Source: Marinobacterium sediminicola (GTDB lineage Bacteria > Pseudomonadota > Gammaproteobacteria > Pseudomonadales > Balneatricaceae). From it: a stretch of DNA of 64,000 bases. Below the pieces are notes generated by a model that searched no databases, was not told the origin of the DNA, and worked only from the letters and a program-made list of their open reading frames with translations. The translations under genes and the position numbers were made by a program. Shown here in pieces: positions 1 through 7,009 of the stretch; position 1 is the stretch's first letter, and the number at the start of each line of letters is the position of its first letter. The stretch lies in the NCBI RefSeq assembly GCF_022343685.1, contig NZ_CP092123.1, positions 992,001 to 1,056,000 of the forward strand, written 5' to 3'.

Positions 1-1
1 G

Positions 2-793
2 ACCGAGCAGGATGATCGCAATGGCGTGTCTGGTTATGACGCCAACACCGGTGGTCTGGTCATCGGTCTGGACAGCGAGATCAACGACACAACCCGCCTG
101 GGTGTGGCCTTCGCCTACGCCACCACCAACGTGGACGGCAACTCGTCAATTGCGCCGCACAATCTGGATATCGACAGCTATCAGTTGATCGGTTACGGCT
201 CTCGCTCGCTGGATGAAAACACGGATCTGACCTTCCAGGTCGACTTCGGCCAGAACCAGAACGAAGGCAAGCGTCAGATCGCCTTCACCAGCAGCGTTGC
301 GGACTCCGACTATGACAGCTACTCGGCCCATTTGGGCATGGGGATTGTCCGTGGCTACGCCATCAACGACACCAGCCGTGCAACGGCAACCCTTAAGGCT
401 GACTACACCTGGATCAAGGATGAGTCCTACACCGAGACGGGTGCGGGCCTGCTGAACCTGGATGTGGACAGCAATACCACCGAAGCGCTGGTTGCGGGTG
501 TTGAAGGTCAGCTGATTCATACCCTGAATCCGACCACCGACCTCACCGCCAAGCTGGGTGTGGGCTATGACCTGATCAATGAACAGGCCAGCATCACTTC
601 CGCCTTTGCCGGCGCGCCGGGTGCACAGTTCATCACTAAGGGTATCGATCCCAATCCCTGGATCGGTAATGTCGGCCTGGGCCTGCTCCACACCACGGAG
701 AGCGGTGCCGAAATCAGTGCTGACTACAACGCCGAATACCGCTCGGACTACCTGAGTCATACCGCTTCACTGAAGCTGCGTATGGCATTCTAA
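2..793 (+). CDS. Autotransporter-type outer-membrane beta-barrel protein, C-terminal part (5' truncated by window)
   Basis: The reading frame is open from the first bases of the window, so the true start lies upstream. About 264 residues are visible. They show alternating polar/hydrophobic strands separated by Asp/Asn/Gly-rich turns, with recurrent tyrosines, and the chain ends in Leu-Arg-Met-Ala-Phe; a terminal aromatic residue is typical of proteins folded by the BAM complex. This is the pattern of an autotransporter beta-domain, which inserts in the outer membrane and carries or exports an N-terminal passenger. The passenger is not visible, so its function is unknown. A terminator that probably belonged to this gene now lies at 2005-2035, beyond the inserted IS110 element. 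A general beta-barrel outer-membrane protein is the alternative. Confidence 0.7.
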   Translation, partial: TEQDDRNGVSGYDANTGGLVIGLDSEINDTTRLGVAFAYATTNVDGNSSIAPHNLDIDSYQLIGYGSRSLDENTDLTFQVDFGQNQNEGKRQIAFTSSVADSDYDSYSAHLGMGIVRGYAINDTSRATATLKADYTWIKDESYTETGAGLLNLDVDSNTTEALVAGVEGQLIHTLNPTTDLTAKLGVGYDLINEQASITSAFAGAPGAQFITKGIDPNPWIGNVGLGLLHTTESGAEISADYNAEYRSDYLSHTASLKLRMAF

Positions 794-839
794 TGTCATA
801 AAGCGGTTGTATGGATAATTCCGTGTGTTTTCCGGGTAA

Positions 840-1966
<1,127 letters not shown>

Positions 1967-2004
1967 TTATTTATGCTGGACACCACAGTCACTTGTTAGG
2001 ATGA

Positions 2005-2035
2005 AGGTCATGAGCAGTGCTCATGGCCTTTTTTA
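2005..2035 (+). terminator. Rho-independent terminator, separated from its gene by IS110
   Basis: AGG-T-CATGAGCA pairs with TGCTCATG-G-CCT around a one-base loop and is followed by a run of T. It probably ended transcription of the outer-membrane protein gene before IS110 copy 1 landed between them. Confidence 0.65.
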
Positions 2036-2057
2036 TTCATGGAACGACGTTAATGTG

Positions 2058-2906
2058 ATGATAAATGCAGCTGTTGAAAGCCGCTTTTGGCGATACCTGT
2101 TATGGGGAATAGCGGCTGTTATGCTTTCGGCCTGCACCAGTATTCCTTCCCCTGAAGAGCGCATAAGCCACGCAGCTCATTTGGCTGCTCAACACGGGTG
2201 GTCAAGGTTTGTTATACAGGCAGGTATTTTTGAGTTAACGGGGTATGCTCCGAACCATGCAAGAGGAAATGAGCAGCTTCGTATCTACATTGAGGGGGAT
2301 GGACTTGCCTGGGTGAGTCGCAGCCGTCCTTCGTCCAATCCGACACCGGTAAATCCAATGGCATTGCAACTGGCACTGTCCGACCCCACAACTGAGGTCA
2401 TATATCTGGCCAGACCTTGCCAATACACTCCAGGCATAGACTGTTCTTCTCGTTACTGGTTAGGAGAGCGTTTTTCTCCCGAGGTTATTCACTCTTACAA
2501 CCTGGCGTTGGACGAACTCAAGCGGCGCCAGGGCGCCCAGTCGCTTACCTTAATCGGATATTCGGGAGGAGGAGCCATTGCTGCGCTGCTGGCGGCAAGG
2601 AGGCAGGATGTTGATGGGTTGGTGACTGTTGCCGGAAATCTGGATACCGAGTACTGGACTCGATACCATCGAATAACTCCATTACAGGGTTCGCTCAACC
2701 CCGCTGACGAAGTTCAAGTATTGAAGCATGTGCGCCAATGGCACTTCGTGGGTAGTGATGATCAGATTATCCCACCGACCATGGTGCAGCAGTTTGTTGA
2801 CCGTTTCCCAGGTAGTATGAAACCCGGTTTTGAAATAGTTCCAGGTTACAGTCACCATTGCTGTTGGGATAAAAACTGGCCAGCACTTTTGAGAAATGTT
2901 CGATGA
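2058..2906 (+). CDS. Lipoprotein alpha/beta hydrolase
   Basis: A 282-residue protein from the chosen ATG, which places a short charged N-terminus before the hydrophobic stretch YLLWGIAAVML and the lipobox Leu-Ser-Ala-Cys. It is therefore exported and lipid-anchored. The nucleophile elbow is LIGYSGGGAIAALLAARR (G-Y-S-G-G). An acidic residue follows in FVGSDDQIIPP and a histidine in GYSHHCCW, giving a complete Ser-Asp-His set. The reading frame is open upstream into the IS110 transposase, but no start there gives a signal sequence; the ATG at 2010 lies in the terminator stem. The substrate is unknown. It sits alone, convergent with the group II intron. Confidence 0.75.
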   Translation: MINAAVESRFWRYLLWGIAAVMLSACTSIPSPEERISHAAHLAAQHGWSRFVIQAGIFELTGYAPNHARGNEQLRIYIEGDGLAWVSRSRPSSNPTPVNPMALQLALSDPTTEVIYLARPCQYTPGIDCSSRYWLGERFSPEVIHSYNLALDELKRRQGAQSLTLIGYSGGGAIAALLAARRQDVDGLVTVAGNLDTEYWTRYHRITPLQGSLNPADEVQVLKHVRQWHFVGSDDQIIPPTMVQQFVDRFPGSMKPGFEIVPGYSHHCCWDKNWPALLRNVR

Positions 2907-2912
2907 AACTGC

Positions 2913-2947
2913 TGGAGCGGGTGAAGGGAATCGAACCCTCGTCTTAA
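2913..2947 (-). tRNA. 3' exon of a tRNA-Gly gene split by a group II intron
   Basis: On the minus strand this holds the end of the anticodon stem, a 4-nt variable loop, the T-arm (GAGGG-TTCGATT-CCCTT), the acceptor strand CACCCGC, discriminator T and an encoded CCA. The acceptor strand pairs perfectly with GCGGGTG of the 5' exon at 5534-5572. The joined tRNA body would be 71 nt, the same length as the intact tRNA-Gly at 4700-4773. Confidence 0.85.
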
Positions 2948-3022
2948 GTCGGGTAGGAAGATGACCTCACGGTCATCCTCCCCCCTAAGAACCGGACGTG
3001 CAAGTTTCCCTGCATCCGGCTC
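2948..3022 (-). ncRNA. Group II intron domains V and VI
   Basis: Domain V (2989-3022) is a 34-nt hairpin starting GAGCCGG and ending CCGGTTC around GGGAAACT, the catalytic core. Domain VI (2949-2985) is a hairpin GGATGACC-GTGA-GGTCATC with the likely bulged branch-point A seven bases from the intron end. Confidence 0.9.
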
Positions 3023-3031
3023 AAGCAGCCG

Positions 3032-4675
3032 TTAAGCCTGACCTTTCAGCCAAGCCGGCGGCCATGTCGTGCAGCCTCTAGCATGAACTTGTTTGTGGCA
3101 GTTCATGTGTAGAAGCACCAGATTTGCGTCTTCATCGCCTCCTCCGAGACTCTTCCAGACTTTATGGTGTATATCCCATGTGGTCTGTTGAGTGATCAGT
3201 TCTTGGCAAATCGGACATTTTCCCTTTTGGGCCAACCAAATGCGGTTTATCTTGGCTTTGGCCTGCTCGATCATGTTCCGTTTGACCCTGTTTTCGAAGT
3301 AAACCTCGTCGGCAGGATCATAGGGGTTGGCATCGGACCGGATCTTTAGGTGCCTGTTGCACCGGATCCGCGATAACCTGAACAGTTCGAGCCCTCGACT
3401 GACAAACACCCAATCCCGGCTTTTGATGCGCGACCAATATCGCCGCTTGATCCATCTTCGGCCTTTGTTTGGGTGTCTTCTTTGCGCCCAGCGCCAGAGC
3501 AGGTACCAGATTTTGTGGTCCACCTGGTTGAACGTACGTGTAGCACTGACGTGCTTGTGGTACATCCCCCAGCCCCTGATAACAGGGATCAGTTTAGAGA
3601 TCAGTACATCTTGGGACGAAGCCCGATGAGTTCTGACCACATCTCTGACATTTGCGTAGAACCTTTTCTGGTTTTTCTGTGAGGGCGTCATACGCCATTT
3701 GCCTTTGAGCTTTCTGAACGTCCAACCCAGGAAATCAAACCCGTCATTGATATGGGTTATTTTGGTTTTCTGCTCTGACAACTCCAGTCCACGTTCAGCC
3801 AAGAAGTTACGGATCAGGCGCTTGGCCGTTTCCAAAGTCTCTGGATCGGTGGCTGTGACGACAAAGTCATCGGCATAGCGAATGAAATTTACTTTCCGGC
3901 GTCTCGGGAAATGCTTCTTGAGCATTCCTTCCATACCGTCCAGTGCCAGGTTTGCCAACACGGGTGAGATAATTCCTCCCTGTGGCGTTCCCGAGTCAGT
4001 TGGGAAAAGTTTACGCAGTTCGACAAAACCAGCTTTGAGCCATTGCTTCAGCACGGGCCGCTCCAACGGCACATGATTCAGCAACCACTCGTGACTGATG
4101 TTATCGAAGCATCCTTTAATATCACCTTCCAGAATCCACTGTGGGGAGTTTTGACGAGATAGTGCATTGCAGCACTGTGCCATCGCATCCTGAGTGGATC
4201 TATGTGGGCGAAACCCATAGGAATTTCCATCCCCCGTTGTTTCCGATACGGGCTCTAGCGCCAGCAGGTATAGAGCCTGCATAGCACGATCACCCATAGT
4301 TGGAATACCGAGTGGCCGTTTACCGCCATTGGCTTTAGGGATATGGATTCTGCGTAGGGGCTTGGCTTTGTAGTCTCTTGTTGAGAGGTTACTTAGCGCA
4401 AGCATTTTGGCTTTAGGCGTGGACCACACAACCCCATCAATACCAGGGGTCTTGCTGCCTCTATTTTCGGTTACTCGTTTGATGGCTAACGCCTTCGCAC
4501 TCGTTGACCGTGTCAAAAGGCGTTGGAGCTGTTTGACCTTACGCCAGTTGCACTCCATGGTCGCCTTTGCTATTCGGACTTGCAATCTCCTGACCCGAAT
4601 GATGACAGATCGCCACTCCGTAGAGTGCCATTCTGACCACTGGGGGGAGACGACATCACGATTACTCGCGTCCAT
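3032..4675 (-). CDS. ltrA: Group II intron reverse transcriptase/maturase with HNH endonuclease
   Basis: A 547-residue protein. The ATG at 4675 is preceded by GGAGG five bases upstream, so it is preferred to the GTG four codons earlier. RT blocks are clear: the RPLGIPT region, GFRPHRSTQDA, EGDIKGCFDNISHEWLL, GTPQGGIISPVLANLALDG and the active-site YADD near residues 267-270. A thumb/maturase region follows (FLGWTFRK through GWGMYHKH). The C-terminus is an HNH nuclease: two CxxC-type cysteine pairs around WDIHHKVWKSLGGGDEDANL and the last His-Ala-Arg. It promotes splicing of its own intron and target-primed mobility. The frame is intact, so the intron may be mobile. It ends ten bases before domain V. 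Confidence 0.95.
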   Translation of the reverse strand: MDASNRDVVSPQWSEWHSTEWRSVIIRVRRLQVRIAKATMECNWRKVKQLQRLLTRSTSAKALAIKRVTENRGSKTPGIDGVVWSTPKAKMLALSNLSTRDYKAKPLRRIHIPKANGGKRPLGIPTMGDRAMQALYLLALEPVSETTGDGNSYGFRPHRSTQDAMAQCCNALSRQNSPQWILEGDIKGCFDNISHEWLLNHVPLERPVLKQWLKAGFVELRKLFPTDSGTPQGGIISPVLANLALDGMEGMLKKHFPRRRKVNFIRYADDFVVTATDPETLETAKRLIRNFLAERGLELSEQKTKITHINDGFDFLGWTFRKLKGKWRMTPSQKNQKRFYANVRDVVRTHRASSQDVLISKLIPVIRGWGMYHKHVSATRTFNQVDHKIWYLLWRWAQRRHPNKGRRWIKRRYWSRIKSRDWVFVSRGLELFRLSRIRCNRHLKIRSDANPYDPADEVYFENRVKRNMIEQAKAKINRIWLAQKGKCPICQELITQQTTWDIHHKVWKSLGGGDEDANLVLLHMNCHKQVHARGCTTWPPAWLKGQA

Positions 4676-4699
4676 ATCTGCCTCCACTTATTTAGGAAG

Positions 4700-4773
4700 T
4701 GGAGCGGGCGAGGGGAATCGAACCCCCGTACCTTGGTTGGGAACCAAGTGCTCTACCATTGAGCTACGCCCGC
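4700..4773 (-). tRNA. tRNA-Gly(CCC), intact, lying inside the group II intron
   Basis: A full cloverleaf can be drawn: acceptor GCGGGCG/CGCCCGC, D-arm GCTC-AATGGTA-GAGC, anticodon arm CTTGG-TTCCCAA-CCAAG (anticodon CCC), variable GTAC, T-arm GGGGG-TTCGATT-CCCCT, discriminator T and encoded CCA. It ends about 25 bases before the maturase start codon and lies between the intron 5' RNA domains and the maturase gene. Its sequence differs from the split tRNA-Gly, so it is not a simple duplication of it. Confidence 0.93.
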
Positions 4774-5533
4774 TCATGGGAATACCCATGAAGGCAAACA
4801 TTTCACCCAAATGGGCGTCATGATTGCCCATTTGGGTTCTTTGATTTGCAGAGTCTGTCTAGCAACAGACCACCAAGCGGAAGTCAGCACCCTTTCAGGT
4901 TGGGGCAATCATTGCATCCCCTATCCGCACCATTACAGCACGGCATTCGCTTTTTCCGCCATCCTTTAACCGCTACCACTTCGCAGCCCCTTGCGGTTCG
5001 CTAGTCTCAAGGACATGGTATCGGTCTTACCCTGTTCCGTGTAAGTAACACGGGCTGAGAGGGTTCCATCTTAACGCCGGTGGTTATTTTGCCAACGTAG
5101 AGCAACCAAGCAGTGCTCTAACCAACCACTCCCCAGAGGGGATGGGCCACTTATCCGCGTAAGCCCATTCAGCTTGACGACGCTTCGATAATGGTTCGCT
5201 TGCGCTAACCCTTCAGCTCAACCTAGCATCTCACCTGCTTGCGGAAGCAAGATCCTGCTTTGGCCCTCACGGACCTTAGCAGACCCGTGAGGGTGATTAC
5301 ATTGTCAGAGCGCTTAGTACCCGGCAGTTACCCGCCACGCACCGCTCCTAGGTTACGGATGGTCGGACATCCGGTCCTCTACGGGTACAAGACCCGCCGG
5401 ACAATTACTTACACGGCTTACACCGTGGAAAGGACTCAGCACGAAGGTTGAGACCACATTTGGATTGCTATTTTCCTCACGCTAACAATGCGTGGTGAGG
5501 AGGCTAGCTACCTCCACGACTCTCAGGTCGCAC
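4774..5533 (-). ncRNA. Group II intron 5' RNA (domains I-III and start of IV)
   Basis: No protein is encoded here. The stretch holds many strong hairpins, including the EBS1 loop at about 5100-5120 (AGAGCA-CTGCTTGGT-TGCTCT on the minus strand). Near 4809-4842 a long inverted repeat ACCCAAATGGGC/GCCCATTTGGGT precedes the embedded tRNA. Short reading frames on the plus strand here are not real genes. Confidence 0.8.
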
Positions 5534-5572
5534 GCTTGGGAAGCTTCTGCTCTACCATTGAGCTACACCCGC
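5534..5572 (-). tRNA. 5' exon of the intron-split tRNA-Gly(CCC)
   Basis: On the minus strand: acceptor GCGGGTG, TA, D-arm GCTC-AATGGTA-GAGC, A, anticodon strand GAAGC, loop TTCCCAA (anticodon CCC) and the first two bases of the 3' anticodon strand. The group II intron starts at the next base. After joining, four of five anticodon-stem pairs form and the outermost is a G-A mismatch. Confidence 0.87.
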
Positions 5573-5614
5573 GAAGGACCCCAGACTACCACGATCAGGG
5601 CTGAGGTACAGCCT

Positions 5615-7009
5615 TTACGTTCGGCCGTACCGATCCTCGAAGCGCTCGATATCCTCTTCATCCAGACGTTCACCGGACTGCACTTCCAGAATCAGCAGTT
5701 CCTGATCGGTGGCGTTTTGCAGCCGATGCCGTTCGCCGCGAGCGATAAAGGTGGACGCGTTAGCCCCCAGATCGAAACACTGATCGCTCCGTGTGATCCT
5801 GGCGGTGCCGGACAGCACGATCCAATGCTCGGTACGATGCTCATGACGTTGCAGGGATAGAGACTCGCCCGGTTTGATGTGCAGGATCTTGACCTTGAAC
5901 CCCAGCCCTTCCGACAGCACTTCGTGCCAGCCCCAGGGGCGATAAACACGTGGATGCAGTCGCAACTCACGTCGCTGCTGATCATTGAGTCGCTGCAGCA
6001 GCGGGGCAAGACGGTCCATATGATCACGGTTGGCCAGTAACAGAGCATCCGGTGTATCCACTACAAGTAGCCGGTCAAGGCCGACCCCGGCGATCAATCT
6101 CTTGTCACCAAATACCAGCGTATCTGCACAGCCTTCCAGCAGGGTGTCACCCAGCTTTAAGCAGCCACGCTCATCAGACTGATGATCGTGAAGTTTGGCC
6201 AGTGCTTCCCAGCTGCCCAGGTCCTGCCAGTCGGCATCAAGGCGGGTGCAGTGGCGATGGGATTCGTGTTCCAGAACGGCGTAGTCAATGGAGATCGACG
6301 GTGACTGCCGAAATGCATCAGGTTGAACACGAATGAAATCAAGATCGCGCTGTTTCTGTTGCCAGGCACGGCGGCAGGCGTCGTGCAATGCAGGCTGGCA
6401 CTGCTGCACAGCGTTCAGCCAACGGTCAGCGCGACACAGCAGCAACCCGGAGTTCCACAGGGCTCCTGCGCTGATCAGCTCGGCAGCAGTGTCCACATCC
6501 GGTTTTTCCACAAAGCGTTCCACCCGACCATCTGTTTGCGCCAGTATATAACCGTAGCCGGTTTCCGGACGGCAGGGGGGGAGGCCAAAGACGCAGAAAG
6601 CGCCTTCATGTGCGGCGCTCGTAGCGCTATCAACCGCTTTGGCAAGCGCTTCAATCGGCCTGATACGCTGGTCAGCCGGGAGGACCAGCAGCAATTCATC
6701 CGCCGCACCGTTTTCGGTGCAGGCCAACGCGGCAAGCGTGAGCGACGCGGCGGTGTTGCGACCTTCCGGCTCCAGAATGATTTGGCCTTCAAGACCGCTT
6801 TCCTGCAGTTGTTGGGCAAGCAGAAAACGGTGCTCATCCTGGCCAATCAGTAGCGCAGGCCGATGGCACAGTTGGGCGGCTCTTTGCAGACACTGTTGCA
6901 GCAGCGATGCCTGGCTCCCGTCCAGAGTCAGAAACTGTTTCGGATAGTGCTGGCGCGAAAGGGGCCAGAGGCGACTGCCGGTTCCACCGGCCAGAATGAC
7001 GGCTTGCAT
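5615..7009 (-). CDS. manC: Mannose-1-phosphate guanylyltransferase / mannose-6-phosphate isomerase (bifunctional, type II PMI)
   Basis: 464 residues, the usual length of AlgA/ManC/CpsB enzymes. The N-terminal nucleotidyltransferase starts with ILAGGTGSRLWPLSRQHYPKQF, the GTP-binding signature, and continues with FVEKPD, NSGLLLCRAD and WQDLGSWEAL. The C-terminal cupin-type isomerase domain has YRPWGWHEVL, the metal-binding LSLQRHEHRTEHWIVLSGTA and FIARGERHRLQN. It makes GDP-mannose from mannose 6-phosphate (with phosphomannomutase) for cell-surface polysaccharide or alginate-like exopolymer. It is a single gene whose 3' end faces the split tRNA-Gly; no polysaccharide operon is adjacent, so the polymer is unknown. 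Confidence 0.93.
   Translation of the reverse strand: MQAVILAGGTGSRLWPLSRQHYPKQFLTLDGSQASLLQQCLQRAAQLCHRPALLIGQDEHRFLLAQQLQESGLEGQIILEPEGRNTAASLTLAALACTENGAADELLLVLPADQRIRPIEALAKAVDSATSAAHEGAFCVFGLPPCRPETGYGYILAQTDGRVERFVEKPDVDTAAELISAGALWNSGLLLCRADRWLNAVQQCQPALHDACRRAWQQKQRDLDFIRVQPDAFRQSPSISIDYAVLEHESHRHCTRLDADWQDLGSWEALAKLHDHQSDERGCLKLGDTLLEGCADTLVFGDKRLIAGVGLDRLLVVDTPDALLLANRDHMDRLAPLLQRLNDQQRRELRLHPRVYRPWGWHEVLSEGLGFKVKILHIKPGESLSLQRHEHRTEHWIVLSGTARITRSDQCFDLGANASTFIARGERHRLQNATDQELLILEVQSGERLDEEDIERFEDRYGRT

What the first reader, a model, noticed from the sequence alone, without database searches (positions are those of the whole stretch)
4700..4773. Intact tRNA-Gly(CCC) carried in domain IV of the intron that breaks a tRNA-Gly(CCC)
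The embedded tRNA has the same anticodon as the gene the intron disrupts, but a different sequence. An intron that brings its own replacement tRNA would make insertion harmless, like an addiction-free rescue. Alternatives are two tandem tRNA genes reshuffled by intron movement, or a tRNA captured by retromobility. The encoded CCA and the position just ahead of the maturase start also mean that the tRNA could be cut from the same transcript, with RNase P/Z processing competing with splicing.
Basis: partly seen in the sequence, partly recalled or inferred. Interest (0 to 1): 0.82.

Follow-up and report, generated by a model that had tools for sequence, protein, structure and literature searches.

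The report
tRNA nested inside intron splitting tRNA
A self-splicing mobile intron has cut a bacterial glycine tRNA gene in two, and inside its own body it carries a second, intact glycine tRNA of the same kind, altered at the positions the intron uses to recognise its target, which looks like a natural backup copy but was seen in one genome only.

Summary
On the minus strand a 2,586-nt group II intron (5533-2948) with an RT/maturase/HNH protein splits a tRNA-Gly(CCC) gene (exons 5572-5534, 2947-2913). An intact tRNA-Gly(CCC) with CCA (4773-4700) lies in its domain IV, just ahead of the maturase gene. The joined exons equal, letter for letter, tRNA-Gly(CCC) of two alphaproteobacterial genomes: the limits are exact and the gene was probably acquired laterally. 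The search showed no other tRNA-Gly(CCC) in this genome and none in seven same-genus genomes. New here: nested and split tRNA differ at 14 of 74 positions. Twelve of these form six complete base pairs, and two flipped pairs break 3 of 11 predicted EBS1/EBS2 pairings with the intron and change IBS3. Of 25 other tRNA-Gly(CCC) compared, 24 keep all these contacts. So the nested tRNA looks functional and a poor target for its own intron, as a recoded backup would. Against: this genus seems to live without the gene; no second case was found (0 of 93 related loci carry a tRNA there); no expression data exist here. A group II intron in a bacterial tRNA gene is known (TeI4h). The nested same-anticodon tRNA did not turn up in my ten literature searches. 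The backup role is inferred.

The parts
5534..5572 (-). 5' exon: first 39 nt of the split tRNA-Gly(CCC), ending CCAAGC (IBS1)
   Evidence: 100% match to positions 1-39 of the joined tRNA
2948..5533 (-). group II intron, 2,586 nt, begins GUGCGAC, ends CCCGAC
   Evidence: the 3' end ACCCGAC is shared with 11 of 20 relatives examined
2913..2947 (-). 3' exon: last 35 nt of the split tRNA-Gly(CCC), with CCA
4700..4773 (-). nested intact tRNA-Gly(CCC) with CCA, in domain IV
5171..5175 (-). EBS2 (AAGCU, intron 359-363), pairs with IBS2 AGCUU
   Evidence: same place pairs with the 5' exon in L036, L043 and L049
5106..5111 (-). EBS1 (GCUUGG, intron 423-428) in a hairpin loop, pairs with IBS1 CCAAGC
   Evidence: L049 has a full 6-bp EBS1-IBS1 match at the aligned loop
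4790..4796 (-). UGCCUUC, complementary to GGAGGCA at 4685-4679 (inferred domain IVa arm)
   Evidence: read; similar SD-covering helices in relatives; not in the minimum-energy fold with the tRNA in place
4683..4703 (-). hairpin UCCACUU/AAGUGGA joining the 3' end of the nested tRNA to the maturase ribosome-binding site
3032..4675 (-). maturase from the likely ATG start: RT, GIIM and HNH domains (ORF list start GTG 4687)
2948..3024 (-). domains V and VI, with a bulged A 7 nt from the 3' end (2954)

Best explanation
A mobile group II intron with a reverse transcriptase/HNH maturase sits between nt 39 and 40 of an alphaproteobacterial-type tRNA-Gly(CCC) gene, placed by EBS1/EBS2 pairing with the anticodon arm. 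In domain IV, ahead of the maturase, it carries a complete second tRNA-Gly(CCC). Most likely one transcript gives both tRNAs: splicing rejoins the split one, and RNase P plus 3' processing frees the nested one, either from the precursor or from the excised intron. Domain IV is the place where a group II intron best tolerates a cut. The nested copy keeps the CCC anticodon and all stems but has flipped anticodon-stem pairs that mismatch the intron's EBS1, EBS2 and the IBS3 base, so it is a poor target or false splice site for its own intron. It would act as a recoded backup that keeps tRNA-Gly(CCC) supplied when splicing fails. Shown: anatomy, exact exons, identities, mismatches, Watson-Crick upkeep of the nested tRNA. 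Inferred: expression, processing, resistance and the backup role.
For: Nested tRNA intact, rank 13 of 80 by score. Joined exons identical to tRNA-Gly(CCC) of G693 and G707. Same anticodon as the split gene, and a BLAST search of the genome with the joined tRNA found, besides the two exons and the nested tRNA, only the tRNA-Gly(TCC) gene. Nested and split tRNA differ at 14 of 74 positions; 12 of these are six whole base pairs of the cloverleaf (positions, pairing by the standard cloverleaf). EBS1 6/6 and EBS2 5/5 with the split tRNA; nested tRNA loses 3 of these 11 and changes IBS3; EBS1 duplex -7.7 against -2.4 kcal/mol. EBS2 position supported in L036, L043, L049, EBS1 in L049. 24 of 25 other tRNA-Gly(CCC) have no change at the 12 contact positions, one has 2, the nested one has 4. 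Intron looks competent: RT, GIIM, HNH, domains V/VI with bulged A. TeI4h in tRNA-Ile(CAU) of T. elongatus was judged able to splice to a functional tRNA (PMC2882425, passage).
Against: Seven of seven same-genus genomes gave only a partial hit like this genome's own TCC gene, so tRNA-Gly(CCC) is probably dispensable in this genus and a backup not needed here. None of 93 related loci with enough upstream DNA has a tRNA ahead of the RT gene. Only one intron copy in the genome. No promoter signal above shuffles (1 found, 2.0 expected). Two tRNA-rich viral contigs carry tRNA-Gly(CCC) with the same anticodon arm, so that arm can arise for other reasons. No RNA data.
Confidence: 0.45

Rival explanations
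1. Captured tRNA without a rescue role: a mature tRNA was copied into domain IV (by template switching of the intron's own reverse transcriptase, or by DNA recombination) and is kept as neutral cargo, or as a bonus tRNA for GGG codons in a host that lacks one.
For: The insert is a full mature tRNA from nt 1 to CCA in a part of domain IV that varies among relatives. The genus seems to lack tRNA-Gly(CCC), so the cargo would add a decoder rather than replace one. Single case.
Against: Sharing the anticodon with the split gene is unlikely for a random capture (about 1 in 60, my estimate). The changes fall on otherwise constant contact positions. Twelve of 14 differences keep or restore base pairs, so it is not decaying.
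Confidence: 0.28
2. The tRNA serves the intron as a processing and control element: cutting it out splits domain IV, frees the maturase mRNA with an open ribosome-binding site, and shifts the element from mobility to expression; its anticodon is incidental or a safeguard.
For: The tRNA's 3' UCCA is predicted to pair with the maturase ribosome-binding site (UCCACUU/AAGUGGA). In 14 of 15 usable relatives the site is at least half paired, in 13 with an upstream arm 6-24 nt away. LtrA is known to occlude its own Shine-Dalgarno site (PMC3073962, passage).
Against: Rests on single-sequence folding. Does not explain the shared anticodon or the flipped pairs.
Confidence: 0.12
3. The nested tRNA is a phage-type tRNA whose altered anticodon stem protects it from an anticodon nuclease.
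For: The same CTTGG-TTCCCAA-CCAAG arm is found in tRNA-Gly(CCC) of two tRNA-rich viral contigs, L181 and L183. [quoted passage not shown]
Against: The rest of the nested tRNA resembles the split tRNA (4 differences outside nt 26-44) and not the viral ones (L183 differs from the split tRNA at 48 positions when compared without gaps). The two viral tRNAs were picked by this very motif. The loop itself, which such nucleases cut, is unchanged.
Confidence: 0.1
4. Wrong limits: two tandem tRNA genes with an intron beside them, not a tRNA inside the intron.
For: Two tRNA-Gly(CCC) sequences about 800 bp apart in the same orientation.
Against: Domains I-III lie before and the maturase plus domains V/VI after the nested tRNA; exons join exactly.
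Confidence: 0.02

Closest known systems
TeI4h, group II intron in the single-copy tRNA-Ile(CAU) gene of Thermosynechococcus elongatus (PMC2882425, passage seen)
   Same: Bacterial ORF-containing group II intron in a tRNA gene, good EBS/IBS pairing, judged to splice to a functional tRNA
   Different: No nested tRNA mentioned in the passages I saw; different tRNA; RT class not compared here
Chloroplast trnK intron with matK (passages in PMC4424553, PMC8393795)
   Same: Group II intron with maturase gene inside a tRNA gene
   Different: Degenerate organellar maturase; no nested tRNA mentioned
EcI5 and other group IIB introns (PMC3898094, passages)
   Same: EBS1, EBS2, EBS3 recognition of the target; RT with En domain
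   Different: Not tRNA-targeting in what I saw; no tRNA in domain IV
Genomic islands and prophages that integrate in tRNA genes and restore the 3' part (recalled; one example: Mesorhizobium phage vB_MseS-P1 carries the last 35-36 nt of this tRNA beside its integrase)
   Same: Element keeps its target tRNA working by carrying tRNA sequence
   Different: Restores the gene by recombination, carries a part only; here a whole, changed tRNA rides in an intron
Synthetic recoded-rescue gene drives (recalled, no call)
   Same: Element that breaks a gene carries a recoded, target-resistant copy
   Different: Engineered, DNA nuclease based

Membership tests
mobile group II intron (IIB-like) | Domain V/VI and domain I structure | tested here: met
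   RF00029 71.1 bits, RF02012 95.3 bits; bulged A in domain VI
mobile group II intron (IIB-like) | 5' GUGYG and 3' AY ends | tested here: met
   GUGCG...GAC
mobile group II intron (IIB-like) | RT, maturase and endonuclease domains | tested here: met
   PF00078, PF13655, PF08388, PF01844; TIGR04416 373.7 bits over cut-off 300
mobile group II intron (IIB-like) | EBS1-IBS1 and EBS2-IBS2 pairing | tested here: met
   6 and 5 pairs; supported in part by relatives
mobile group II intron (IIB-like) | EBS3-IBS3 rather than delta-delta' pairing (separates IIB from IIA) | not tested
   EBS3 not located
mobile group II intron (IIB-like) | Splicing and retrohoming activity | not testable with these tools
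   needs RNA and mobility assays
functional tRNA-Gly(CCC) (nested) | Cloverleaf, CCC anticodon, CCA | tested here: met
functional tRNA-Gly(CCC) (nested) | Made and charged in the cell | not testable with these tools
   no RNA data
recoded rescue element | Carried copy of the target gene with the same decoding | tested here: met
   same anticodon, intact
recoded rescue element | Carried copy altered at the element's recognition positions | tested here: met
   4 of 12 contact positions changed against 0 in 24 of 25 others
recoded rescue element | Target gene needed by the host | tested here: inconclusive
   genus seems to lack the gene; need in the donor unknown
recoded rescue element | Pattern recurs in independent elements | tested here: not met
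   0 of 93 related loci; site pattern real only here among 369 genomes

The most novel reading that the evidence does not exclude
A natural homing element with a recoded rescue gene: a retrohoming intron that targets tRNA-Gly(CCC) and carries a target-resistant, separately processed tRNA-Gly(CCC) in domain IV, so that it can enter a needed tRNA gene without cost and without attacking its own cargo.
Probability: 0.3. Interest if true: 0.85.

Novelty: new variant of a known kind. Interest (0 to 1): 0.66.

Why it matters
If the backup role is real, a selfish RNA has arrived at the design of a recoded-rescue drive, and domain IV of group II introns can host a functional, separately processed RNA gene. 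It would also give a natural test of how tRNA processing (RNase P) and intron splicing share one transcript, and of how an intron avoids a near-copy of its own target within its own sequence.

Tried and rejected
Looked for the same intron or arrangement elsewhere. RT relatives: 10 of 96 relatives' genomes at E<=1e-50; 80 loci kept of 106 relatives found in genome contigs; 0 of 385 alphaproteobacterial genomes at E<=1e-170, a strict limit without a positive control; 1 of 249 genomes of the order of G693 at E<=1e-120, 51% identical; 11 of 381 of the window's own order at E<=1e-185, the best other 57% identical; one viral contig, 48%; 1,628 plasmid records at E<=1e-60, of which I saw 25 and fetched none. 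No close relative of the intron was found, so its history could not be traced.

Insertion-site pattern TTCCCAAGCGTGYGNNC: 4 of 369 genomes of the class; the three others show no group II or tRNA match. AGCTTCCCAAGCGTGYG in viral contigs: 4 stretches, no group II match. Source of the nested tRNA: best hits in phages 84% and plasmids 86.5% (of that search's repeat at a looser limit one short match 93.3%); the ones I read carry other anticodon arms. Tandem-array idea rejected. The relatives whose 5' ends I could not place (L033-L035, L037, L038, L041 and others) were not used for EBS tests. In one search the joined 'host' string is shifted by one base and its fold must be ignored; one search has the right one. 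In one search the start of L098 was picked wrongly and is not counted. Dropped before counts: 8 of 101 loci with under 700 nt upstream; L181 and L183 from the 25 tRNAs, because they were found by the nested arm itself. The pattern survey of 397 genomes lists only part of its matches; of the rows listed, 23 do not begin TTCCCAAGC, and none of these is a tRNA by ARAGORN.

Full report
What is there. The window holds one tRNA by ARAGORN, tRNA-Gly(CCC) at 4773-4700 on the minus strand. It scores 72.3 bits in Rfam, rank 13 of the 80 tRNA matches listed for the genome. Around it is a group II intron: RF02012 at 5374-5227 and RF00029 (domains V/VI) at 3024-2948. An ORF at 4687-3032 has RT, GIIM and HNH domains. 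The intron starts GUGCGAC at 5533 and ends CCCGAC at 2948, 2,586 nt. Its last letters ACCCGAC are shared by 11 of 20 relatives examined. Domain VI folds as a hairpin with a bulged A seven nucleotides from the end. This single complete-contig genome has one copy of the intron.

The split gene. The 39 nt before and 35 nt after the intron join to a 74-nt tRNA-Gly(CCC). Searched against 96 genomes, the joined tRNA found full-length tRNA-Gly(CCC) in other genera of the family and order. In its own genome it found only the two exons, the nested tRNA and a partial hit that is tRNA-Gly(TCC). In each of seven same-genus genomes it found only a partial hit of the same kind; I did not fetch those seven, so the absence of CCC there is inferred. 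A pattern survey pointed to two alphaproteobacterial genomes, G693 and G707. Their tRNA-Gly(CCC) is identical to the joined exons, 0 of 74 differences, whereas the gamma-type genes compared differ at 7 or more positions. So the intron limits are exact, and the tRNA was probably acquired from that group.

Neighbourhood. In same-genus genome G002 the GMP/PMI gene (window 5615-7009) and the next conserved stretch are 75 nt apart; in this genome they are about 8.6 kb apart and collinear, with the split tRNA and intron in the gap. The tRNA unit thus lies in a segment that G002 lacks.

Why the nested tRNA is inside the intron. Between the 5' exon and the nested tRNA, 4854-5374 aligns with domains I-III of 13 relatives. 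The maturase and domains V/VI follow on the other side. In relatives the stretch ahead of the maturase is a variable structured leader. In 14 of 15 usable relatives the ribosome-binding site is at least half paired, in 13 of them with an arm 6-24 nt upstream (L098 not usable, L035 unpaired, L038 pairs far away). In the window UGCCUUC (4796-4790) could pair with GGAGGCA (4685-4679), and the tRNA lies between these arms. This helix appears in one of two illustrative folds without the tRNA, and not in the fold with it; there the tRNA's 3' UCCACUU pairs with AAGUGGA over the ribosome-binding site instead. The arms are therefore an inference from complementarity and relatives.

Target recognition. 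EBS1 is GCUUGG at intron 423, in a hairpin loop, pairing 6 of 6 with IBS1 CCAAGC; EBS2 is AAGCU at intron 359, pairing 5 of 5 with AGCUU. EBS2's place is backed by relatives: at the same spot L036, L043 and L049 pair with their own 5' exons by 5, 5 and 6 pairs. EBS1's place is backed by L049, 6 of 6. EBS3 was not located.

The nested tRNA against the split one. They differ at 14 of 74 positions. In the standard cloverleaf 12 of these are both sides of six pairs (6-65, 26-42, 27-41, 28-40, 30-38, 48-62), every one a Watson-Crick pair in the nested tRNA; the other two are in the variable loop. A decaying copy would not look so. Two of the six, 28-40 and 30-38, fall on target contacts: they break EBS2 at two places and EBS1 at one, 3 of 11 pairs, and change IBS3 from T to A. 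The EBS1 duplex weakens from -7.7 to -2.4 kcal/mol. Mismatches in this pairing are said to affect targeting strongly (PMC3898094, passage). Among 25 other tRNA-Gly(CCC), 24 show no change at the 12 contact positions and one shows 2, although they differ from the split tRNA at up to 17 positions in all. In a survey of 397 genomes, of the rows listed (the list is cut) all but 23 begin TTCCCAAGC, and none of these 23 is a tRNA. The same flipped arm does occur in tRNA-Gly(CCC) of two tRNA-rich viral contigs, found by that motif.

How it most likely works. One transcript, with no sign of a promoter of its own for the nested tRNA, is spliced to the alphaproteobacterial tRNA; the nested tRNA is freed by RNase P and 3' processing. 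Natural trans-splicing introns are nearly all broken in domain IV (PMC4424553, passage), so this cut need not prevent splicing, though it should prevent retrohoming of that molecule (inference). The flipped pairs keep the nested copy from being a false splice site or insertion target. The pair then acts as target plus recoded backup. I give this 0.45. The chief doubts are that the genus seems to do without tRNA-Gly(CCC), that no second case was found (0 of 93 related loci with enough upstream sequence, one of them a duplicate), and that nothing here shows RNA.

What is known. A bacterial group II intron in a tRNA gene has been described: TeI4h in tRNA-Ile(CAU) of Thermosynechococcus elongatus (PMC2882425, passage). 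trnK/matK is the organellar parallel. A review says only in general that self-splicing introns occur in bacterial tRNAs (PMC4390854, passages). Ten full-text searches of the open library listed no paper that I recognised as describing a tRNA nested in a group II intron, or one matching the tRNA it interrupts; I read passages of eight papers and the abstract and outline of one more. Subscription papers are mostly missing from that library. I file it as a new variant of a known kind.

Noticed in passing
window 1016-1966 +: IS110-family transposase ORF (NF033542, 214 bits) in the same acquired segment as the intron.
   Followed up: no
window 1-5613 and the 3 kb before the window (L198): About 8.6 kb, with FadL-like and autotransporter-like genes (names by eye), lies between two stretches that are 75 nt apart in same-genus genome G002.
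   Followed up: partly
L191, 11-46: Mesorhizobium phage vB_MseS-P1 carries the 3' half of this tRNA-Gly(CCC) at 97% next to its integrase gene: probably its attachment site.
   Followed up: partly
L181 (4648-4722) and L183 (1068-1141): tRNA-rich viral contigs, one of 543 kb, with tRNA-Gly(CCC) that bear the same unusual anticodon arm as the nested tRNA.
   Followed up: partly
window 4805-4837: Strong 13-pair hairpin in domain IV that reads as a terminator-like site on the plus strand; relatives have a comparable hairpin ahead of the maturase.
   Followed up: no
intron 20-105 (window about 5515-5430): Compared with L036, L043 and L049 the window's intron has roughly 100 extra nt near its 5' end (160 against 56-57 nt before the RF02012 match).
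   Followed up: no
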